IMG/VR virus record: IMGVR_UViG_3300045935_000047
Location: 1 to 21,779 of that record
Length of the DNA: 21,779 nt
From: a virus
Strand: one strand, 5' to 3'
Shown: in pieces, positions 3,958-16,906 of the stretch
How the letters are laid out: each line of letters starts with the position of its first letter
How positions within the stretch are numbered: position 1 is the stretch's first letter
Notes under the pieces: model-generated
Seen by the model: the letters and a program-made list of their open reading frames with translations, nothing else
The model's database searches: none
What the model was told of the DNA's origin: nothing
Position numbers and translations under genes: made by a program

Positions 3958-3985
3958 TAACCAATCCATGCTTTTGGGAGCACAG

Positions 3986-4933
3986 ATGGCTGACCAAAGT
4001 GTACCGCTCGTGTCCCTGGAACGTCTCCGGATCGAGCAGTCGAAATTTCAACAAGGCTTGATCGCCGAGAACACCGCCCGCGGGTATGCGTCCGACTGGA
4101 AGGTCTTCGAAGACTTTTGCGCGCGCTACCGCCTGACCGCGTTGCCGGCGACCGAGGAGACGGTGAGCCTCTTCCTCACGGACCAATTGAGCCGCCGCAA
4201 AATCAGCACCGCGCGGCGGCGCAAGTGGGCCATCGTCTTCGAACACCGCAGCCGCGGAATGCCTTCTCCGGCGGGGATCATAACGAAGGAACTTCTGCGC
4301 GGCGCCCAGCGGATCCGCGGGGAGAAGCCGCGGCAGATGCAGCCGATCACCGTCGCCCAGCTGCGCGAGATGTCCGCCGGCCTCTGCAAGGTCGGGACTC
4401 CGGTAGCATTGCGCAACCGCGCAATACTGGTGCTCGGCTTCGCCTCCTCGTTGCGCCGTTCGAACCTTACGAGGCTGCGCCTGGCAGACGTGGAGTTGTG
4501 CGAGCAAGGTTTGATCGTCTGTGTAGACCGCGAGAAGAACGATCAGGAGGCCAAGGGGCGGCTTATTGGCATTCCGCGGGGAAAGCACCGCCATACCGAC
4601 CCCGTGCGCGTCCTCGAGGCGTGGCTGCGAGTGCGTACCGGCACTGCTGAAGGGCCGTTGTTCCCACGGCTCGACCTTTCGCATGAAGGCGAGCCGCTGG
4701 ACGGTCAGAGCGTGTGCCGGGTGCTCAAGGAGACGCTGAATACCTTCGGCATCGACAGCAGCCAGCGGGGTGCGCATTCGCTCCGCAGCGGACTGATTAC
4801 GGCGGCCGCGGAGGCCAATATCAGCGCGCTCCGCATCGCCGCCTATACCGCGCAGTCGCCTGAAATCGTGCGCCTCTACTTTCGCAGGAGTGAATTGTGG
4901 CGGGGTAACGTCGCCGGCTGCGTCGGGTTGTGA
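3986..4933 (+). CDS. int: Tyrosine recombinase / phage integrase (315 aa)
   Basis: A 315-residue site-specific recombinase. Residues about 20-105 form the helical core-binding domain (SAM-like; NTARGYASDWKVFEDFC). The catalytic domain follows: Arg I is in SSLRRSN (R157), the beta-hairpin Lys is probably K184 (DREKND), HxxR is H264-R267 (AHSLRSG) and the nucleophile is Y298 (RLYFRR). The second His/Trp position, normally nine residues before Tyr, is Ala (A289, in YTAQSPE). The ATG at 3986 has GGGAG six bases upstream; an ATG at 3968 has none. It would insert the phage into the host chromosome, and the attachment site should be close. A resolvase role is less likely given the phage context. Confidence 0.9.
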   Translation: MADQSVPLVSLERLRIEQSKFQQGLIAENTARGYASDWKVFEDFCARYRLTALPATEETVSLFLTDQLSRRKISTARRRKWAIVFEHRSRGMPSPAGIITKELLRGAQRIRGEKPRQMQPITVAQLREMSAGLCKVGTPVALRNRAILVLGFASSLRRSNLTRLRLADVELCEQGLIVCVDREKNDQEAKGRLIGIPRGKHRHTDPVRVLEAWLRVRTGTAEGPLFPRLDLSHEGEPLDGQSVCRVLKETLNTFGIDSSQRGAHSLRSGLITAAAEANISALRIAAYTAQSPEIVRLYFRRSELWRGNVAGCVGL

Positions 4934-6252: not shown

Positions 6253-6467
6253 CGGTTGGGATACTACGCACATTACTTGCGCCGCTCGCTGATGACCTCA
6301 CCATCATCGTCACCGGTCCTTGCCTGGATGACGACGGTGACGAGGCCGAGGCGTGGTTTTCGCTTCAGGCAGTGAACGTCAAAATGGACAGCGACACCGG
6401 CGAAGAGTACGCCCGGTTCGGCTGCACCCGGCTGGATAATTTCGAACCCAATGACACCGACGGTTGA
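6249..6467 (+). CDS. Small acidic hypothetical protein (72 aa)
   Basis: A 72-residue acidic protein (DDDGDEAEAW near residue 27, net negative throughout) with no recognised family. The strands around LTIIVTG and FSLQAVNVKM suggest a compact beta fold. It overlaps the upstream gene by four bases and the terminase gene by 17 bases, so it is probably translated with both. By position it could be a terminase partner, but its length is well below that of usual small terminases. Confidence 0.6.
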   Translation: MTVGILRTLLAPLADDLTIIVTGPCLDDDGDEAEAWFSLQAVNVKMDSDTGEEYARFGCTRLDNFEPNDTDG

Positions 6468-8019
6468 GGCCGAAGCGGAACTGGTAGATGCGGTTGCGCA
6501 ATACAAAGACGACCCGCTGGGCTGGGTGCGCTTCGCATACCCCTGGCGAGAGCAAAGGACGCCGCTCGCGGATTACGCCGGCCCTGACGAGTGGCAAGGG
6601 GAACTCCTGCGCGAGATTGGCGAAGAGGTACGGCGCCGCGGTTTCAACGGTCTCGATGCGGTTGGCCCGATTCGCCAGGCCATCAGTTCCGGCCACGGTA
6701 TCGGGAAATCCACCACTTCCGCCTGGCTGGCGAACTGGATCATGTCCACGCGCCCGAATTCGCAGGGCACTATCACCAGCAACACATTCGCGCAGTTGAG
6801 CACCAAGACCTGGCCGGCCATCCTCAAGTGGACGCGCATGTGCATCACCGGCCACTGGTTCGTGGCGGGCGCGGAAAAGATCGTTGCCAAGGCGGCCCCG
6901 GAATCCTGGTTTGTGACCGCACAGACGTGCCGGCGCGAAAACTCCGAGGCCTTCCACGGGCAGCATGCGGCCCGGTCAACCAGTTGGTACCTGTTTGACG
7001 AGGCCTCGGCAATTCCGGACGAGATCTGGAACGCGGCCGAGGGCGGCCTGACGGATGGCGAGCCCATGATCTTCGCCTGGGGCAATCCGACCCGGAACAC
7101 CGGCAAGTTTCACCGCATCGTTTTCGGCAGCGAACGGGACCGCTGGCGCCAGAAGATCATCGACAGCCGTACCGCAAGGTTCACCAACAAGGCCCTGCTC
7201 GAGGAGTGGATCCACGACTACGGCGAAGACTCCGATTTTGTAAGGGTTCGCGTCCGCGGGATCGCGCCGCGCGCCGGCGAGTTGCAATACATTGACCAGG
7301 AACGGGTCTGGCAGGCGCAGCAGAGACTGGAATCCAGCTTCGCAGACGACCCCCTGGTGTGTGGATTCGACGTCGCCGGCCGTGGCGGAATGTTCAGCAT
7401 GGCGGGCGCAAGGAGTGATGGCGGCGGCGACGGCGCCGCCAGGCGCGACAGCGGCGGATCGGGCGCCTGGAACGTCATCGCCTTCCGCCGCGGCCTGGAC
7501 GCGCGCACGATACCCGCTATCCGGATCTCGGGCGAGGATACGCGGGACCGTTCCGTCATGATGGCGAAGCTGACCGAGATTCTCTCGGACAAGCGGCCCA
7601 CGCACAAGGTCGCGATGATGTTTGTCGATAGCGCCTTCGGCGCGCCCTACGTGGAGCGGCTGCGTCAGATGGGGTTCGACAACGTGATGGAAGTCAATTT
7701 CGGGGCGCCTTCGCACGACCGCCACCAGGCCAACATGCGGGCGTATATGTGGGCGCGGATGAAGGAGTGGCTCCTGAAGGGCGCGATTCCCGGCGACAAC
7801 ATACTCGAGACGGATCTCACCGGCCCCGGCTACCACCTCAATAAAAGCGAGCAGCTCGTGATCGAGAGCAAGGCCGACATGGTGAAGCGCGGGATCGCGA
7901 GCCCGGATTTTGGGGATGCGCTGGCGCTGACCTTCGCGGCATTTGTGCCGCCGCAAGGGCCGGCCGCGGCGCAGGAATTCGAGCGGGGATTTGGCGGCGG
8001 CGGGTCGTGGATGGGGTGA
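6451..8019 (+). CDS. terL: Terminase large subunit, P22 gp2-like (522 aa)
   Basis: The packaging motor: an ATPase that threads DNA into the procapsid through the portal and a nuclease that cuts the concatemer. Walker A is GHGIGKST (residues 81-88), Walker B is WYLFDEAS with D183-E184, and the coupling motif is probably GNPT (211-214). The C-terminal RNase H-like nuclease carries FDVAG (D307), FVDSAFG (D393) and PDFGDA (D486/D489). Residues about 314-341, just after the first nuclease Asp, form a Gly/Asp/Ala-rich insert. The length is usual for the family. The start overlaps the preceding gene; the long N-terminal part (PLGWVRFAYPW) is typical of terminases. Functional by all visible motifs. 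Confidence 0.93.
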   Translation: MTPTVEAEAELVDAVAQYKDDPLGWVRFAYPWREQRTPLADYAGPDEWQGELLREIGEEVRRRGFNGLDAVGPIRQAISSGHGIGKSTTSAWLANWIMSTRPNSQGTITSNTFAQLSTKTWPAILKWTRMCITGHWFVAGAEKIVAKAAPESWFVTAQTCRRENSEAFHGQHAARSTSWYLFDEASAIPDEIWNAAEGGLTDGEPMIFAWGNPTRNTGKFHRIVFGSERDRWRQKIIDSRTARFTNKALLEEWIHDYGEDSDFVRVRVRGIAPRAGELQYIDQERVWQAQQRLESSFADDPLVCGFDVAGRGGMFSMAGARSDGGGDGAARRDSGGSGAWNVIAFRRGLDARTIPAIRISGEDTRDRSVMMAKLTEILSDKRPTHKVAMMFVDSAFGAPYVERLRQMGFDNVMEVNFGAPSHDRHQANMRAYMWARMKEWLLKGAIPGDNILETDLTGPGYHLNKSEQLVIESKADMVKRGIASPDFGDALALTFAAFVPPQGPAAAQEFERGFGGGGSWMG

Positions 8020-9091: not shown

Positions 9092-9256
9092 ATGCCACTA
9101 AAAAAGGGCAAATCTCCCAAGGTCATCAGCGCCAATATCCGCACTGAAGTGGCCGCGGGGAAAAAGCCGAAACAGGCAGTGGCGATCGCGCTGCGGACTG
9201 CGGGCAAGCCGAAAAAGCGCACGCTGGGCGACCTGATGAAGGATGGCAAGCAGTAA
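9092..9256 (+). CDS. Small basic protein (54 aa)
   Basis: A 54-residue basic protein (MPLKKGKSPKVISANIRTEV start), with residues about 8-35 predicted helical and a KQAVAIALRTAGKPKK segment. The pattern resembles a family of very small Lys-rich phage proteins (K-G-x-S-x-K-V-I-S-x-N-I, KQAVAIAL) found near portal genes; the function is not known to me, although DNA binding would suit the charge. AGAAGGTAACAG gives a good ribosome site. The end overlaps the portal gene by 14 bases. Confidence 0.7.
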   Translation: MPLKKGKSPKVISANIRTEVAAGKKPKQAVAIALRTAGKPKKRTLGDLMKDGKQ

Positions 9257-11426
9257 GGCCGACAAAGATCTGATCGCGACGGCACGCGAACGCTACAAAC
9301 TCGCCGAATCATCCGAAAGCGAGATCCGGCGCGAGGCGAAAATCGACCTCGAGTTCGCGGCCGGCAACCAGTGGGACGAAGACGACAAGCAGCGGCGCAA
9401 CATGATGGGCCAGGGCGGCAAGCGGCCCTGCCTGACCTTCAATAAGCTGACCGGGCCGCTGAACCAGGTCGCCAACCAGGCCCGCATGAATAAGCCCGAC
9501 CTCGAGGCTTTGCCGGTCGATTCCTCAGGCGATGCGGAAACGGCCAGGGTGTACGAGGGCATGATCCGCCACATTCAGTACGCCTCGAAAGCCGATCAAG
9601 TTTACGAGACTTCGTTGGATCAAAGCACGAAGGGCGGTTTCGGGTATTTCAAAGTCACAACGAAATACTGCGGAAACAAGACGTTCGACCAGGAAATCCG
9701 CATCGAGCGCATCCTGAACCCGTTCAGCGTGCTGATGGACCCCTACGCACGCGAAGCGGACAAAAGCGATGCCAAGTGGGCCTTTGAACTCGAGTGGATC
9801 TCGCGCGAAGAATACGAGGCCGAATTCGGCAAGACTGAAATCGTCTCGCTGAATTACTTCGACGGCGGCATCAACCCGGCCCCGGACTGGATCGGCAAAC
9901 AGGGCGTGCTGGTGGCCCGCTACTGGTACGTCGAGATCGAAACCAAAACGCTGGTGGGCATCCAATGGCCGGACGGCAGGATCACGAGCGAGTACGTTGA
10001 GAACCTGCCCGAGGAACTGCCCCCGGGCGTGCAGTACGCGGTCGATAAGGACGGCAGCCGCATCGAACGCGAAGACCAGATCCGGCACGTCAAAATGTGC
10101 CGCCTGAATGGTATAGAGATCCTGGACGAAACCGACTGGAAAGGGCAATGGATCCCGATCCTGGCCGTGCTGGGCGAAGAGATGTACATCGAGAACAAGC
10201 GATACCTCTTCAGCCTGATCCGCTTCGCCCGCGACCCGCAAAAGCTCTATAACTTCTACCGCAGTTCGGAAGCCGAAACGGTCATGCTCGGCACCAAAGC
10301 GCCGTGGGTCGGAGTGAAGGGCGCGTTTAAGGATCCCCGATGGGCGAGCGCAAACACCGTCCCGTGGGCCTATCTCGAGTACGAACCCCTGGACATTGCC
10401 GGCAACCCGGTCCCGATGCCGCAGCGCAACCTGGCGGAGCCGCCGATACAGGCTCTGTCGATCGGCGCCGCGCAGGCGTCCGACGACATCAAGGCGACCA
10501 CGAACGTCTACGACGCCTCGCTGGGCTCGCAGTCCAACGAGACTTCCGGCATCGCGCTCCAGCGGCGCCAGGGGCAGATGGAACTGTCCAATTTCCACTT
10601 CGTCGACAATCTGAACCGCGCCATTCTCCAGTGCGGCGTCATCCTCTGCGACCTGATTCCGAAGATCTACGACACGCCGCGCGAAGTGCGGATCTTGGGC
10701 GAGGACATGCAGGAGGAAATCGTCAAACTGAACCAGAAGTTCCAGGACGATTACGGCCAGGAGAAGTGCTACGACCTCACCAACGGCAAGTATGACGTGC
10801 GCCTGAAGATCGGGCCGAGTTTCAAGACGCAGCAGCAGGAGACGGCGTCTCAGGTTACGGAACTGTCGCGCAACTTCCCGCAATTGATGACTGTAGCCGG
10901 CGACATCGTCTTCGATAACTTGAATTTCGCCGGCGCCGAGAAAATCGCAGACAGATTGCGCCGCGCCATGCCGCCGAACCTGACGGAAGAGACCGGCAAA
11001 AAGCCGGCCGAACTGCTCGCGCAGCAGAACCAGCAGCAGGCGCAGCAGATCGAGCAGATGACCGCGGCCTTAAACAAACTAACTGACGATATACGCTCCA
11101 AACGCATCGAGTCGGAATCGCAGCAGCAGATCGAGCAGATGAAGATCGAGAGCAGCGATCGCCAGGCCGCCCTCAAGGCGCAGGTTGACTTGATCAAGCT
11201 GGAATCGTCGCTGACGTCCACCGAGGATATCGCGATACTGCGCAACCAGGTAGTCCTGCTCCAGGCCCAGATGGCCGCTATGGCGTCCGGCGCCGCGGCC
11301 GATGCCGCGGCAGGCCCGGAACCCGGCGAAGCGATGGGGGGGCCCGAAGGGGCGCCTATGGGCGGGCCAATGGGCGGCAGTGCCGCCATTCCGCCCGCAG
11401 GGCCGCAGCAGCAGGTCGGAATATGA
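9243..11426 (+). CDS. Portal protein, P22 gp1-like (727 aa)
   Basis: Forms the ring at the unique head vertex through which DNA enters and leaves. The family signature is clear: an N-terminal helix region, FAAGNQWDEDDKQRR (around residues 38-52), FNKLTGPLNQVANQARMNKPD (about 65-85), SLDQSTKGGFGYFKV and ERILNPFSVLMDPYA. About residues 590-680 form a long helical/coiled-coil barrel section rich in Gln (QQNQQQAQQIEQM), the counterpart of the P22 portal barrel. The last ~40 residues are Gly/Ala/Pro-rich. The length is normal for P22-type portals and much larger than siphophage portals. It overlaps the small basic protein and is followed one base later by the convergent antitoxin gene. Confidence 0.92.
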   Translation: MASSKADKDLIATARERYKLAESSESEIRREAKIDLEFAAGNQWDEDDKQRRNMMGQGGKRPCLTFNKLTGPLNQVANQARMNKPDLEALPVDSSGDAETARVYEGMIRHIQYASKADQVYETSLDQSTKGGFGYFKVTTKYCGNKTFDQEIRIERILNPFSVLMDPYAREADKSDAKWAFELEWISREEYEAEFGKTEIVSLNYFDGGINPAPDWIGKQGVLVARYWYVEIETKTLVGIQWPDGRITSEYVENLPEELPPGVQYAVDKDGSRIEREDQIRHVKMCRLNGIEILDETDWKGQWIPILAVLGEEMYIENKRYLFSLIRFARDPQKLYNFYRSSEAETVMLGTKAPWVGVKGAFKDPRWASANTVPWAYLEYEPLDIAGNPVPMPQRNLAEPPIQALSIGAAQASDDIKATTNVYDASLGSQSNETSGIALQRRQGQMELSNFHFVDNLNRAILQCGVILCDLIPKIYDTPREVRILGEDMQEEIVKLNQKFQDDYGQEKCYDLTNGKYDVRLKIGPSFKTQQQETASQVTELSRNFPQLMTVAGDIVFDNLNFAGAEKIADRLRRAMPPNLTEETGKKPAELLAQQNQQQAQQIEQMTAALNKLTDDIRSKRIESESQQQIEQMKIESSDRQAALKAQVDLIKLESSLTSTEDIAILRNQVVLLQAQMAAMASGAAADAAAGPEPGEAMGGPEGAPMGGPMGGSAAIPPAGPQQQVGI

Positions 11427-11427
11427 C

Positions 11428-11712
11428 CTATTCGGCGGTCAGAGCTTGATGGACAAGCGATTTCAGATAGGTTTGATACCCCAGGCCCTTTTGTTCTGCC
11501 TGGGTCTTGGCAAGCTCGATATCCGCAACCGAAAGACGAATCGTAATGGGCTGCGTCTGCTTTCGTTTTTCAATCTCGGCTGCGGCGATCTGGGCGGGAG
11601 TCATCAATTTTCCGTTGGCATCGCGAACCGGCTTTCCCCACTTGACCTTGTCACGGTTCCGGTAATACCAGTCGGCCTCTTCGGCTTCAGTTTTAAACTT
11701 TGGAATCTTCAT
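11428..11712 (-). CDS. brnA: CopG-type antitoxin partner of BrnT (94 aa)
   Basis: I choose the ATG at 11712 (MKIPKFKTEAEEADWYY), which overlaps the toxin stop by four bases; a longer frame only runs into the toxin gene. Residues 1-25 (FKTEAEEADWYYRNRD) match the start of the CopG_antitoxin family. The C-terminal third (QPITIRLSVADIELAKTQAEQKG then YQTYLKSLVHQAL) is a ribbon-helix-helix: the strand ITIRL contacts DNA and the two helices dimerise. It should neutralise BrnT and repress the operon at the dyad at 11960-11980. Its 3' end nearly touches the portal stop. The gene symbol is used for the functional pair; the family is the CopG type rather than classical BrnA. Confidence 0.8.
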   Translation of the reverse strand: MKIPKFKTEAEEADWYYRNRDKVKWGKPVRDANGKLMTPAQIAAAEIEKRKQTQPITIRLSVADIELAKTQAEQKGLGYQTYLKSLVHQALTAE

Positions 11713-11951
11713 TGGTGTTTCCTGCCTTTCCAATAAGCGGTGACCACGCGAACACGTTCGCCGCGCAAGGTCCATATCACATCGAGGCGGCGGCCGCCTG
11801 TGATCCCGGTGGTTCTCTGCCGCCATTCGCTGCCTCCGCGTCCCGGTACGGTCGCGACGGGATTGTACATGGCGGTTTCGCAGTCCTCAGGGGTGACGCC
11901 ATGCAAGGCGATATGGCGGCGGTTGGCGTCATCCCACTCGAATTTCAGCAC
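11709..11951 (-). CDS. brnT: BrnT-family ribonuclease toxin (80 aa)
   Basis: An 80-residue toxin related to RelE-like ribonucleases. FEWDDANRRHIALHGVTPEDCE (residues 4-25) is the family N-terminus (EWD...N..KHGV), and the strands DVIWTLRGERVRVVTAYWK (about 57-75) contain the Arg and Trp expected in the active region; several family members end in -ARxAxxxE, whereas this one ends WKGRKHQ. It starts with GTG at 11951, and no ribosome site precedes it. A probable promoter places the transcript start close to that codon, so leaderless translation is possible. It cleaves RNA to halt growth when antitoxin is lost, acting as phage or lysogen maintenance or anti-superinfection. Confidence 0.8.
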   Translation of the reverse strand: MLKFEWDDANRRHIALHGVTPEDCETAMYNPVATVPGRGGSEWRQRTTGITGGRRLDVIWTLRGERVRVVTAYWKGRKHQ

Positions 11952-11957
11952 TATCTA

Positions 11958-11987
11958 AGTGTACATCGAATGTATGTACAGTGTCAA
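11958..11987 (-). promoter_or_regulatory. Toxin-antitoxin promoter with operator dyad
   Basis: On the minus strand, TTGACA (11987-11982) and TACACT (11963-11958) form -35 and -10 boxes 18 bases apart. The spacer region holds the perfect inverted repeat TGTACAT / ATGTACA (11960-11966 and 11974-11980; 7-bp arms, 7-bp centre). A ribbon-helix-helix antitoxin bound here would block RNA polymerase, as is usual for this kind of system. Confidence 0.65.
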
Positions 11988-11991
11988 CTTC

Positions 11992-11997
11992 TATAAA
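11992..11997 (+). promoter_or_regulatory. Possible -10 box for the scaffold gene
   Basis: TATAAA lies 12 bases before the scaffold ATG, in the gap opened by the toxin-antitoxin pair. No convincing -35 box stands at the right distance, and the leader would be very short. It is noted because the oppositely oriented module would otherwise separate scaffold and coat from the upstream operon. Confidence 0.25.
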
Positions 11998-12008
11998 ACA
12001 TCAGCCTT

Positions 12009-12929
12009 ATGCCAGACGAAGTAACCCCTACGCCCGAGCAAGGGACGGAAGCATCCACAGAAGGCGCGGCCCCGACTGACTTTCGGGAGTATGCCAAGTG
12101 GCGCGCAACCGGTGAATTGCCCGAGGCGCAGGAAACAGCAGCACCCGCGGCCGCGCCCGAAGCGCCGGCCAAAACTGAACCGGACCCGGAAACGGAAGAC
12201 CATCAGGAACCAGGGGAAGAAGAACCGCCAGACGACGCAGCCGGCGGCAAAGGCCGCGGCGGATCACGCCAGAGACGCATCGATAGGCTCACCAGGGAAA
12301 ACGAGGAGTTGAAGCGGCAACTGGCCGGCGCAAAGCCGGCGCAGCCGCAGGATAAGCCCTCGGAACCCGCACCCGCCGGCAAGCCGAAGCTCGAAAACTA
12401 TCAAACGCTCGAGGCATACCAGGAAGCTCTGACGGACTGGAAATTCGACCAACGCGAGCAACAGCGCAAAGACGCTGACGCGAAAGCCGCGGCCGATACA
12501 GCCATCCGCCAGGAGCAGGAGACGTGGACGGCCAAAGAGAAAGCCGCACGCAAGGCGCACGCCGACTACGACGACCTGATCGACACGGTGCAGATCCCGG
12601 CGGGGCCGGGAGTCCTGGCCGCCCGGCAGGCCATGTTGGAAGACGAAAACGGTGCCGAACTGCTTTACTACCTCGCGAAGCGTCCTAAAGAACTCGAGCG
12701 CATTGCCGGCCTGACGCCGGCGAGCGCGGTCCTGGCAATAGGCAAACTGTCGGTTGCACTTTCCCCTGCCTCTCCTGTAAACGGCAAACCCCAGATAACA
12801 AGCGCACCCAAACCGCCGCCGCCAAGTGGCCGGCCTTCAAAGGTCACGAGCGATTCGATCGATGATCCCGAAGTGCAGCGCGACTTCAAGCGGTACGTGA
12901 AAGTGAGGGCGCAAATGAAGGGTACATAG
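12009..12929 (+). CDS. Scaffolding protein (306 aa)
   Basis: Predicted from position (portal - scaffold - coat, the standard P22 order) and composition. It is highly charged and Ala/Pro/Glu-rich and has no cysteine. Residues about 1-75 are acidic and disordered. GGSRQRRIDRLTRENEELKRQ (around 85-105) begins a coiled coil, and about 150-185 is a long Lys/Glu/Gln/Ala helix. The C-terminal part is Pro-rich and then ends basic (RDFKRYVKVRAQMKGT), as expected for the coat-binding helix-turn-helix of P22-type scaffolds. It would guide procapsid assembly and leave before or during packaging. No ribosome site precedes the ATG. Confidence 0.8.
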   Translation: MPDEVTPTPEQGTEASTEGAAPTDFREYAKWRATGELPEAQETAAPAAAPEAPAKTEPDPETEDHQEPGEEEPPDDAAGGKGRGGSRQRRIDRLTRENEELKRQLAGAKPAQPQDKPSEPAPAGKPKLENYQTLEAYQEALTDWKFDQREQQRKDADAKAAADTAIRQEQETWTAKEKAARKAHADYDDLIDTVQIPAGPGVLAARQAMLEDENGAELLYYLAKRPKELERIAGLTPASAVLAIGKLSVALSPASPVNGKPQITSAPKPPPPSGRPSKVTSDSIDDPEVQRDFKRYVKVRAQMKGT

Positions 12930-12930
12930 A

Positions 12931-14145
12931 ATGGCAGGAAATACGCTTCTGTCCGCACAGGTGATCACCAACGAACTCCTGATGCGGTTCAAAAACAACC
13001 TCGGCTTCTCGGGCGCAATCGCCCACACCTGGGACGACAAATTCGCCGTCGAGGGCGCCAAGATCGGCGACACCGTCCGTCTGCGCGACCCTGTGCGGTT
13101 CACGGTTGCCAAGGGTAGAGTGATTACGCCCCAGGACGTCACCGAGACGTCGAAGACCCTCACACTCAATACCCAGGCGAACGTGTCCTTCCAGTTCACG
13201 TCCGCTGAACTGACCCTCACAATCGACGCATTCCGCGACCGCTATCTCGATTCGGCGGCGGTTGCGCTCGCTAACGCAGTCGATGTGGACGGGCTGCTGA
13301 TGGCGTACCAGGCCACGCCCAACGCAATCGGGACTCCCGGTTCGCCTCTGACCATGCTCGACGCCGCATGGCAGGCCGGCGAAGTGCTGGACCTGAATTC
13401 GACGCCGATGGACGGCAAACGCAGCATGGTGATCTCGCCGAAGGTGCAGACACTGACGCTGAAAGCCGCGCAAGGACTCTTCCAATCGTCCACGCAGGTC
13501 AAAAACCAGTACGAGCGCGGGCGCATGGGAACTATGGGCGGCTTCGAGTGGGTGATGGATCAGAACACGCCCGTGCATACGGTTGGTCCGCTCGGCGGCG
13601 CACCGGCGGTTACGGTGGCCAACCAGACCGGATCGACGCTCCTGACATCCGGCTGGACCGCCGCGGCGGCGCTGCGCCTCAAAAAAGGCGACCTGTTTAC
13701 GCTGCCGACCGTATTCCGGGTCAATCCGGTTTCGGGCGCGGTTGGCTCCGATCTGCAACAGTTCGTGGTGACGGCCGATACCTCGAGCGATGCCGCAGGC
13801 CTGGCCTCGATTCCGATCTACCCGCCGATCAACGCCGCGGGCGCGACCAGGACCGTCAGCAACTCGCCGGCCGCCGGTGCCCCGCTCACGATCATCGGCA
13901 CGGCGAACCAATTGACGGCGCAATCGATCGCGTTCCACGAGAGCGCCTTCGTCATCGGCATGGCGCCGCTCGTGGTCCCGAAGGGCGTCCACTTTGGCGC
14001 GTCCCAGAGCGACCCTGACACCGGAGTTTCGATTCGTATGCTCAGTGACTACGACATCGTAAATGATTTGTTTATAACGAGATGCGATGTTTTGTACGGC
14101 CACGCAGCACAGCGGCCCGAATGGGCAGTACGTCTAGAGAGCTAA
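12931..14145 (+). CDS. Major coat protein, P22 gp5-like (404 aa)
   Basis: The shell protein of the head (HK97 fold of the P22 type). The start (LLSAQVITNELLMRFKNNL) and the region EGAKIGDTVRLRDPVRFTV...FQFTSAELTLTIDAFRDRYLD are typical of the P22 coat family: an N-arm helix, then the long E-loop and P-domain. Residues about 215-345 with many Thr/Ala/Gly probably include the inserted I-domain-like region. About 404 residues agrees with family length (P22 430). It begins one base after the scaffold stop and is abundant in the virion. The last ~110 bases are clearly more AT-rich than the rest of the gene, adjacent to the HNH gene. Confidence 0.9.
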   Translation: MAGNTLLSAQVITNELLMRFKNNLGFSGAIAHTWDDKFAVEGAKIGDTVRLRDPVRFTVAKGRVITPQDVTETSKTLTLNTQANVSFQFTSAELTLTIDAFRDRYLDSAAVALANAVDVDGLLMAYQATPNAIGTPGSPLTMLDAAWQAGEVLDLNSTPMDGKRSMVISPKVQTLTLKAAQGLFQSSTQVKNQYERGRMGTMGGFEWVMDQNTPVHTVGPLGGAPAVTVANQTGSTLLTSGWTAAAALRLKKGDLFTLPTVFRVNPVSGAVGSDLQQFVVTADTSSDAAGLASIPIYPPINAAGATRTVSNSPAAGAPLTIIGTANQLTAQSIAFHESAFVIGMAPLVVPKGVHFGASQSDPDTGVSIRMLSDYDIVNDLFITRCDVLYGHAAQRPEWAVRLES

Positions 14146-14165: not shown

Positions 14166-14882
14166 ATGTCGATCAATGATGACTTTACACGTATAGAAAT
14201 AGAAAGTCAATGTGCTCACTGCGGCGAGTTGTATCGAACGAGAAAACGTATTCGAACCACCGAGTACTGCTCCAGGGAGTGCTACCAAAAAGCGCGGCAA
14301 GTGCGGGCTGCGGACGATACAAAAAAGCCGTGTGAGCAATGCGGTGCTTTGTTCGGTCCGCAACCGCGAAGCGATGGCGGTCGATTTTTCCGTATGGCCG
14401 ATTTTCGAAACCGCCGATTTTGCAGCCTCCAATGCGCCACAGATTCGCGACGAAATACGATGGCAGACCTCTTGAAGAAGCTCGTTATCGACCCGGTCAC
14501 GAATTGCCATATCTGGACCGGGCACAAAAGCCATCACTACGGAGTAGCGAGAATGGCCGGGCGCAATATCACCGTTCACCGGGCGATTTGGGAGCACTAC
14601 AGGGGAACAATTCCACCAGACCGCCAGATCGATCATACGTGCGGTGCAAAGTTGTGCTGCAACGTGAATCATTTGCGTTTGGTAACGGCGCGCGAGAATT
14701 CGCTCGCGGCGACCAGCAACAATATGGCGGCTCGAAATCACAGGCGTGTCAAATGTCCGTTGTGCGGCGGCCCATATAGCGCGTTTCCGAATGGAACCCG
14801 TTACTGCAAACCCTGCCGTCACGCTCAACAGATGCGGTATCAACGCCGTTACCGCGCCGCCAAACGAAAACAAAAGGAATAA
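14166..14882 (+). CDS. HNH homing endonuclease with zinc knuckles (238 aa)
   Basis: A free-standing endonuclease. Two N-terminal zinc knuckles: C16-C19 with C35-C39 and C56-C59 with C86-C90. The HNH nuclease spans about 110-175: WTG (117-119), H138 (VHRAIWEHYRG), D156-H157 (QIDHTCG), C164-C165 and N168-H169 (NVNHLRLVT), all consistent with an active HNH_3-type enzyme. A third knuckle (C197-C200, C214-C217) and a basic tail follow. Its composition is more AT-rich than its neighbours, and it sits between coat and the next structural gene with only a 20-base gap and no strong ribosome site: a typical mobile homing gene. It would nick DNA of endonuclease-less relatives at this place. Confidence 0.88.
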   Translation: MSINDDFTRIEIESQCAHCGELYRTRKRIRTTEYCSRECYQKARQVRAADDTKKPCEQCGALFGPQPRSDGGRFFRMADFRNRRFCSLQCATDSRRNTMADLLKKLVIDPVTNCHIWTGHKSHHYGVARMAGRNITVHRAIWEHYRGTIPPDRQIDHTCGAKLCCNVNHLRLVTARENSLAATSNNMAARNHRRVKCPLCGGPYSAFPNGTRYCKPCRHAQQMRYQRRYRAAKRKQKE

Positions 14883-16261: not shown

Positions 16262-16906
16262 ATGCCTACAGTAAGCGAATTCATCCACTCATCGATGCGC
16301 CTGATAGGCGCCATTGCGGCCGCTGAGACGCTCGAAACCAACGAACTGAACGACGCGCTGGTGACGGCGAACCAGTTGCTGTCAAGTTTTAATACCGAGG
16401 GCGCTTCGCTTGTGGCCCGCAAGCGGCTGACCATGAGCGTATCGGCCACGAATGGCCCCTTCACGCTCTCAGAGCGGCCGGTTAGGATCGAAGCGGCCTC
16501 GGTTGCCTCAGGCGGCATCGATTCGCAATTAGAGATTGTGGATTCCGTTGGATGGGAAGCGACACCGGAAAAGTTGGCCCAGTCGGTCTATGTCCGCAAG
16601 CTGTACTGCGACTATGGCTACCCGTCCGCAGCAGTGTATATCGCTCCAGTGCCGCGGCTGGGCGGCCAGCTTGAGATGTGGATTTACGTGCCGTTGACAC
16701 AGTTCGCCTCGCTCTCGACTGTGATCGATCTGCCGCCGGGATACGAGATGGCTCTGCGCTATAACCTTGCGGTTGCCCTTCTGCCCGAGTACCCGCGTTC
16801 AGAAGTTGATCCCACGTTGTTGCAGCAAGCCCAGAACTACAAGGCGGCAATCGTGCAACTCAATGCGCAGAACCACATGCGCTCACAGGCGCCGGCCGCG
16901 GCTTGA
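16262..16906 (+). CDS. Head-completion / tail-accessory protein, P22 gp4-like (214 aa)
   Basis: Likely the first factor that plugs the portal after packaging. The N-terminal helices (TVSEFIHSSMRLIGAI ... ELNDALVTANQLLSSF) and a following strand region, then MWIYVPLTQFASL...IDLPPGYEMALRYNLAVAL (about 138-175), and a C-terminal helix (QAQNYKAAIVQLNAQ) follow the gp4-like family. It starts at an ATG with GAGG eight bases upstream, and is about 50 residues longer than P22 gp4. A second, larger protein with the same core lies at 19062, so this module has been duplicated. Confidence 0.75.
   Translation: MPTVSEFIHSSMRLIGAIAAAETLETNELNDALVTANQLLSSFNTEGASLVARKRLTMSVSATNGPFTLSERPVRIEAASVASGGIDSQLEIVDSVGWEATPEKLAQSVYVRKLYCDYGYPSAAVYIAPVPRLGGQLEMWIYVPLTQFASLSTVIDLPPGYEMALRYNLAVALLPEYPRSEVDPTLLQQAQNYKAAIVQLNAQNHMRSQAPAAA

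What the first reader, a model, noticed from the sequence alone, without database searches (positions are those of the whole stretch)
11428..12008. Toxin-antitoxin pair inserted backwards between portal and scaffold
A BrnT/CopG-type pair sits on the opposite strand in the middle of the head operon, one base from the portal stop. Its promoter and a perfect 7-bp dyad lie in the 57 bases before the scaffold gene, so antitoxin binding or convergent transcription could influence scaffold and coat expression. TA modules are usually placed with lysogeny genes, not within head genes. It may serve superinfection exclusion, lysogen maintenance or a head-gene timing switch.
Basis: partly seen in the sequence, partly recalled or inferred. 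Interest (0 to 1): 0.6.

Follow-up and report, generated by a model that had tools for sequence, protein, structure and literature searches.

The report
Toxin-antitoxin cargo in phage head operon
A soil bacterial virus carries a small self-controlled toxin-antitoxin gene pair, backwards, between two of its shell-building genes, at a joint where its relatives carry other passenger genes or none, so it is most likely cargo used while the virus lies dormant in its host.

Summary
A BrnT-fold toxin gene (11709-11951, minus) and a CopG-type antitoxin gene (11428-11712, minus) lie between portal and scaffold of a P22-like podophage. A sigma-70-like promoter with an overlapping 21-bp dyad lies in the 57 nt before scaffold. 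The dyad belongs to the module: it recurs upstream of homologues in an unrelated phage and in bacteria. In 39 records with this joint readable, 21 have portal and scaffold abutting; the other 18 carry exchangeable cargo (this pair, HigBA, a conserved small minus-strand gene, methyltransferases, an HTH gene). All 11 above-cutoff toxin-family hits in 44 related records run against the portal gene (about 8 independent insertions). I read this as an autoregulated moron in a variable slot of a probably temperate phage, plausibly of Acidobacteriota, serving lysogen defence or maintenance. Antisense morons are known (Tab of JBD26), so this is a new variant of a known kind. A head-gene switch is unlikely. 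Caveats: two of five residues needed for B. abortus BrnT RNase activity are replaced and a third is Glu to Asp, so toxicity is unproven; lysogeny is inferred from an integrase alone.

The parts
11709..11951 (-). BrnT-fold toxin gene (80 aa, GTG start)
   Evidence: Pfam PF04365 over cutoff; AlphaFold model pLDDT 90.1, best structural matches 7vd7 Z 10.7 and BrnT 3u97 Z 10.0, next 6.8
11428..11712 (-). CopG/RHH antitoxin gene (94 aa, ATG start), overlaps toxin by 4 nt
   Evidence: Pfam PF12441 over cutoff; N-terminal EEADW-like and C-terminal RHH-like blocks conserved in an alignment of 18 sequences
11958..11987 (-). sigma-70-like promoter of the pair (TTGACA, 18 nt, TACACT)
   Evidence: same hexamer spacing in L029
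11960..11980 (.). operator-like dyad TGTACAT-N7-ATGTACA covering most of the -10 hexamer and most of the spacer
   Evidence: recurs upstream of homologues
11952..12008 (.). 57-nt gap between toxin start and scaffold start
9243..11426 (+). P22-like portal gene, left flank
   Evidence: PF16510 2e-162
12009..12929 (+). scaffold gene, right flank
   Evidence: phrog_8865 2e-45
12931..14145 (+). coat gene
   Evidence: PF11651 1.8e-37
6451..8019 (+). terminase large subunit gene (context)
   Evidence: phrog_2 5.2e-30
3968..4933 (+). tyrosine integrase gene (context; the evidence for lysogeny)
   Evidence: PF00589 1.6e-8

Best explanation
This is a moron: a complete type II-like toxin-antitoxin cassette with its own autoregulated promoter, seated in a variable cargo slot at the portal-scaffold joint of a P22-like phage that is probably temperate and plausibly infects Acidobacteriota. 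Shown from sequence: gene identities, overlap, promoter-dyad geometry, dyad recurrence with the module, empty and differently filled sites in relatives, opposite strand. Inferred: in the prophage the minus promoter is used; the antitoxin dimer or TA complex binds the dyad over the -10 region and shuts it off, keeping the pair low; the toxin is freed when antitoxin is lost (foreign phage, or loss of the prophage), which protects the lysogen. The reverse orientation keeps the pair out of the late mRNA; on induction, late transcription runs across it from the other side and would further dampen it.
For: Family and fold. Codon-position pattern of selected proteins. Operator pattern TGTAYAT-N7-ATRTACA with 3 or fewer mismatches upstream of 12 of 26 toxin homologues tested, 10 of the 12 beginning 25-31 nt before the start. 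Joint empty in 21 of 39, filled in 18 of 39, 14 of the 18 with minus-strand cargo; at least 9 changes of slot state on the portal tree. Other TA insertions against the portal gene: BrnT/CopG upstream of TerL in L054 and between TerL and portal in L004/L023; BrnT/BrnA L009; HicAB L017; DUF4160/DUF2442 L003/L012; HigBA L026, L033. Integrase in 14 of 44 records. Precedents: Tab with own promoter on minus between TerS and TerL (PMC10884400); antisense moron in ST64B (PMC7067206); noncontiguous operons in S. aureus phages (PMC11087260).
Against: Of the five residues reported as needed for B. abortus BrnT RNase activity, two are identical, one is conservative (Glu to Asp) and two are replaced (Lys9 to Asn, Glu78 to His), so the toxin may be weak or act otherwise. 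No Peptidase_S24 repressor in any of 11 records searched and HTH_3 hits in only 4 of 11; no prophage of this portal type found in GTDB by peptide pattern. 4 of 18 filled slots carry plus-strand cargo. The operator pattern was written after seeing the window, L091 and L097, and 14 of 26 upstream regions do not fit it well. No expression data of any kind.
Confidence: 0.62

Rival explanations
1. Head-gene timing switch: the TA operator or convergent transcription tunes scaffold and coat expression.
For: Operator and scaffold start lie within 57 nt; the insert separates portal and scaffold, which abut in 21 of 39 records.
Against: Relatives do without it; the slot takes unrelated cargo including plus-strand methyltransferases; the dyad travels with the module, not with scaffold; no plus-strand promoter-like site found in 11000-12600.
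Confidence: 0.06
2. Decayed or repurposed toxin: catalytic residues are lost and the locus now acts as an antitoxin source that neutralises host BrnT toxins or cures host addiction.
For: Lys9 to Asn and Glu78 to His; antitoxin-like genes without a recognised toxin of this family beside them in L069 and L003/L012.
Against: Toxin frame and protein are conserved between phages (50% to L029) with excess third-position change; Asn at that position is shared by all 22 members of this subfamily in alignment A5, bacterial ones included.
Confidence: 0.17
3. Pure selfish addiction: the cassette stays because losing it kills the lysogen, with no defence role.
For: Turnover of TA types in the slot; TA modules on plasmids and chromosomes can work this way (established knowledge).
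Against: Does not explain why non-TA cargo uses the same slot.
Confidence: 0.12

Closest known systems
BrnT/BrnA of Brucella abortus (PDB 3u97)
   Same: Toxin-first two-gene operon; BrnT fold (Z 10.0); RHH antitoxin controlling its own promoter (PMC11980606 passages; PMC5086665 passage).
   Different: Antitoxin is PF12441, not PF14384; two RNase residues replaced; shorter C-terminus; carried by a phage.
Tab of Pseudomonas phage JBD26
   Same: Minus-strand moron with its own promoter inside the late packaging operon (between TerS and TerL), transcribed from the prophage (PMC10884400 passages).
   Different: Tab blocks tail assembly and is one gene; here a TA pair between portal and scaffold, untested.
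P2/P4 anti-phage hotspots
   Same: Small high-turnover locus between two conserved genes, in P2 next to the portal gene (PMC9122126 passages).
   Different: The P2 slot lies between the replication gene A and portal Q; here between two head genes, with TA modules prominent.
Noncontiguous operon ith-1/tha-1 of S. aureus phage 80alpha
   Same: Antisense gene with its own promoter inside an operon; opposing transcription couples it to the life cycle (PMC11087260 passages).
   Different: There the antisense gene is the inhibitor in the lysogeny operon; here the antisense unit is a TA pair in the late operon and no interference was measured.
HicAB of Moraxella phages Mcat13 and Mcat18
   Same: TA pair antisense between tail genes.
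   Different: Other TA family, tail region.

Membership tests
BrnT sequence/fold family (PF04365) | Profile match over curated cutoff | tested here: met
   37.1 vs 34.5 bits
BrnT sequence/fold family (PF04365) | BrnT fold | tested here: met
   7vd7 Z 10.7, 3u97 Z 10.0 over 73 residues, next 6.8
BrnT ribonuclease as in B. abortus | Residues Asp6, Glu7, Lys9, Arg41, Glu78 (list from PMC5086665) | tested here: not met
   Mapped through 3u97 and alignment A5: D7 and R44 kept, Glu to D8, Lys to N10, Glu78 to H79. Not filed as a BrnT ribonuclease
Type II toxin-antitoxin module | Two small overlapping genes, toxin plus antitoxin with DNA-binding domain | tested here: met
Type II toxin-antitoxin module | Operator over own promoter | tested here: met
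   Sequence level only: dyad 11960-11980 over promoter 11958-11987, recurs in homologues
Type II toxin-antitoxin module | Toxicity and neutralisation by antitoxin | not testable with these tools
   needs expression assay
Phage moron | Present in one phage, absent at the same joint in relatives | tested here: met
   21 of 39 joints empty
Phage moron | Own promoter and terminator | tested here: inconclusive
   Promoter found; no minus-strand intrinsic terminator-like site in 9243-11712
Phage moron | Expressed in the lysogen | not testable with these tools
   no lysogen known
Anti-phage defence system | Protects the host against other phages | not testable with these tools
   needs plaque assays

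The most novel reading that the evidence does not exclude
The antisense seat is itself a two-way life-cycle device. In the lysogen the TA transcript, which has no detectable intrinsic terminator and whose last gene ends one base from the portal stop, runs on into portal as antisense RNA and silences portal mRNA of incoming kin, in the manner of STnc6030 in BTP1 (PMC7067206). On induction the late transcript runs the other way, silences the TA pair, and so couples toxin control to virion assembly. Selection for this geometry would explain why different TA families in unrelated phages sit antisense in packaging and head genes.
Probability: 0.12. Interest if true: 0.72.

Novelty: new variant of a known kind. 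Interest (0 to 1): 0.42.

Why it matters
It shows a repeatedly re-used cargo slot inside a head operon, a place thought unlikely for TA genes, in a P22-like soil phage group possibly of Acidobacteriota, whose phages are little known. Empty and filled natural alleles of one joint give a ready comparison for asking what TA cargo does for a phage, and whether the antisense seat matters. A BrnT subfamily with changed catalytic residues is also worth an activity test.

Tried and rejected
Head-gene switch: rejected as main reading, see rivals. Chance ORFs: rejected (Pfam, fold, codon-position pattern). Dyad as chance: marginal alone (73 of 2000 shuffles), kept because of recurrence. Universal antisense rule: rejected; of 13 annotated phage records that I picked from the BrnT, HigB and HicA hits, 6 have the TA opposite to both annotated neighbours (phi105, Mcat13, Mcat18, Shelly, Javan170, AP45), the others are sense, one-sided or at a record end. 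In L119/L120 the TA lies on the strand of its tail-gene neighbours upstream. Plus-strand cargo exists (L018, L019, L025, L059).

Led nowhere: portal scan of GTDB contigs, 0 relatives among 58 pattern matches; tblastn of the toxin in 50,697 phage records, no match, in plasmids one Deinococcus match; phmmer of the toxin against PDB, no match; Foldseek alone, none at E 0.001 or below; distant blastn of the head operon in phages, 2 weak hits; Peptidase_S24 repressor, 0 of 11; ParE toxin family, 0 of 44.

What the counts leave out: in the 39-joint tally L017, L023, L044, L054 and L060 are omitted because they do not reach scaffold, and duplicate loci of one contig are counted once; some of the 39 are near-identical contigs, so 21 and 18 are not independent. 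L033 was placed by inspection. L033 and L028 are not in the tree because their portal stretch is short. 14 of the 42 tree rows had no slot label when changes were counted, so 9 rests on the 28 labelled rows. Paper searches that did not turn up this arrangement in their listings; only PMC open-licence text was searched, and of the listed papers I read passages of PMC11980606, PMC9122126, PMC11924767, PMC5086665, PMC4619438, PMC7556043, PMC4553209, PMC11087260, PMC7067206 and PMC10884400.

Full report
What is there. The window is a whole IMG/VR record of 21,779 bases from a P22-like podophage: TerL, portal, scaffold, coat on plus, an integrase at 3968-4933. Between portal and scaffold, on minus, lie a BrnT-fold toxin gene and a CopG-type antitoxin gene overlapping by 4 nt, one base from the portal stop. 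The 57 nt before scaffold hold a good sigma-70-like promoter for the pair and a perfect 7-7-7 dyad covering most of its -10 hexamer and most of the spacer. The inferred transcript start is at or next to the toxin GTG, so the toxin may be translated from a leaderless message while the antitoxin follows a GGAAA-like site; this is inference.

The proteins. Both exceed Pfam cutoffs. The AlphaFold model (pLDDT 90.1, pTM 0.80) matches 7vd7 (Z 10.7) and B. abortus BrnT 3u97 (Z 10.0, rmsd 2.0 over 73 residues); the next match is 6.8. A review lists Asp6, Glu7, Lys9, Arg41 and Glu78 as needed for RNase activity (PMC5086665, passage read). Through 3u97 and alignment A5 (24 sequences) these are Asp7, Asp8, Asn10, Arg44 and His79 here. 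The Asn is shared by all 22 members of the subfamily in A5, bacterial ones included; the two classic BrnT rows (L009, L099) have Lys. So it marks a subfamily and not a recent defect. Codon-position differences show protein-level constraint.

The operator travels with the module. The nearest homologue, L029 (toxin 52.6%, antitoxin 64.2% identical over the aligned part), lies in a phage with unrelated terminase and portal. Its promoter region is TTGACA, 18 nt, GACACT, with the same left arm. The pattern TGTAYAT-N7-ATRTACA fits upstream of 12 of 26 toxin genes tested with 3 or fewer mismatches, 10 of these starting 25 to 31 nt before the start; 14 of 26 do not fit that well. The pattern was written after seeing three of the rows (window, L091, L097).

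The slot. I compared 39 records, window included, in which the portal-scaffold joint can be read (tally). In 21 the genes abut or overlap. In 18 there is cargo: BrnT/CopG (window), HigBA (L026, L033), a HigA-like gene plus a small ORF (L006), that small minus-strand ORF alone (10 records; phrog_8785, unknown function), C5-methyltransferases on plus (L018, L019), a 60-aa plus ORF (L025), an HTH-like gene on plus (L059, my reading of the sequence). Slot state changes at least 9 times on the portal tree over the 28 rows that were labelled. Portals next to cargo tend to end differently from portals at empty joints, which suggests exchange including the last portal codons.

More TA modules, same orientation. 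Whole-record scans of 44 related records gave BrnT in 6, HigB in 2, HicA in 1, DUF4160 in 2 over cutoff, ParE in 0. All 11 toxin-family hits run opposite to portal. Collapsing near-identical or homologous insertions leaves about 8; a two-sided sign test gives 0.008, but cargo in general leans to minus here, so this is no TA-specific rule. They sit upstream of TerL (L054), between TerL and portal (L004/L023, L009, L017, L003/L012), at portal-scaffold (window, L026, L033), and before a second integrase (L026 record). Outside the clade, L029 (BrnT/CopG, beside TerL), L117 (HigBA), L121-L123 (BrnT/BrnA between a TerL-like and a TerS-like gene) and L124/L125 (BrnT/BrnA with a HicB-like gene) also run against their packaging or head neighbours; for L117 and L121-L125 this rests on ORF calls and my reading only. 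L069 has a lone CopG-like antitoxin (below the Pfam cutoff) against two large genes that look like tail genes. L119/L120 does not follow the pattern.

Host and life style. Of 28 GTDB loci with antitoxin relatives, 22 are titled as Acidobacteriota taxa. One of four such genomes searched holds a P22-like portal (39% identity), and 2 of 396 genomes of its phylum do, that one included. This points to Acidobacteriota, weakly. Integrase genes occur in 14 of 44 records; many records are fragments. No S24 repressor was found in 11 records, so lysogeny is probable and not shown.

Mechanism. I favour a prophage-expressed, autorepressed TA moron. Tab of JBD26, a minus-strand gene with its own promoter between TerS and TerL, is transcribed from the prophage and defends it (PMC10884400, passages). 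Antisense position to lytic genes is described as characteristic of accessory loci (PMC7067206, passages), and opposing transcription as a life-cycle coupling in S. aureus phages (PMC11087260, passages). Defence against other phages, lysogen maintenance and simple addiction cannot be told apart here. A switch acting on scaffold is unlikely for the reasons given under rivals. No minus-strand terminator-like site was found in 9243-11712, which leaves open antisense read-through into portal.

Novelty. TA modules in phages, antisense morons, and cargo hotspots are each known. New here is a TA-rich set of cargo slots in the packaging and head operon of a P22-like soil group, with natural empty sites, and a divergent BrnT/PF12441 pair. 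I found no paper on this arrangement in the listings.

Noticed in passing
L007:8158-8427 (minus) and homologues in 10 other records: Conserved 81-89 aa minus-strand gene (phrog_8785, unknown function) at the portal-scaffold joint; differences by codon position 445/391/923 summed over pairs of 9 sequences show it is coding.
   Followed up: partly
window 11410-11426; L003:8137-8166; L010:5261-5290: Portal C-terminus differs between empty and filled joints, suggesting the exchange takes the last codons along.
   Followed up: no
records of L003, L011, L018, L024, L026, L027: Two tyrosine recombinase genes per genome; in most, one lies near the packaging genes as in the window and one elsewhere.
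   Followed up: no
L124:1863-3394 and L125:3972-5503: HicB-like gene and BrnT/BrnA pair together, both against the head-gene strand: possible double TA cargo.
   Followed up: no
L113 (G047:C933:18289-20268): P22-like portal, 39% identical, in a Bryobacterales genome that also carries an antitoxin relative (L095).
   Followed up: partly
window 14166-14882: HNH endonuclease gene downstream of coat (PF13392 3.1e-14), a further accessory gene in the late region.
   Followed up: no
L006, L008, L011, L013, L022, L024: Two adjacent matches to the gene at window 16262-16906 in several relatives: tandem copies.
   Followed up: no
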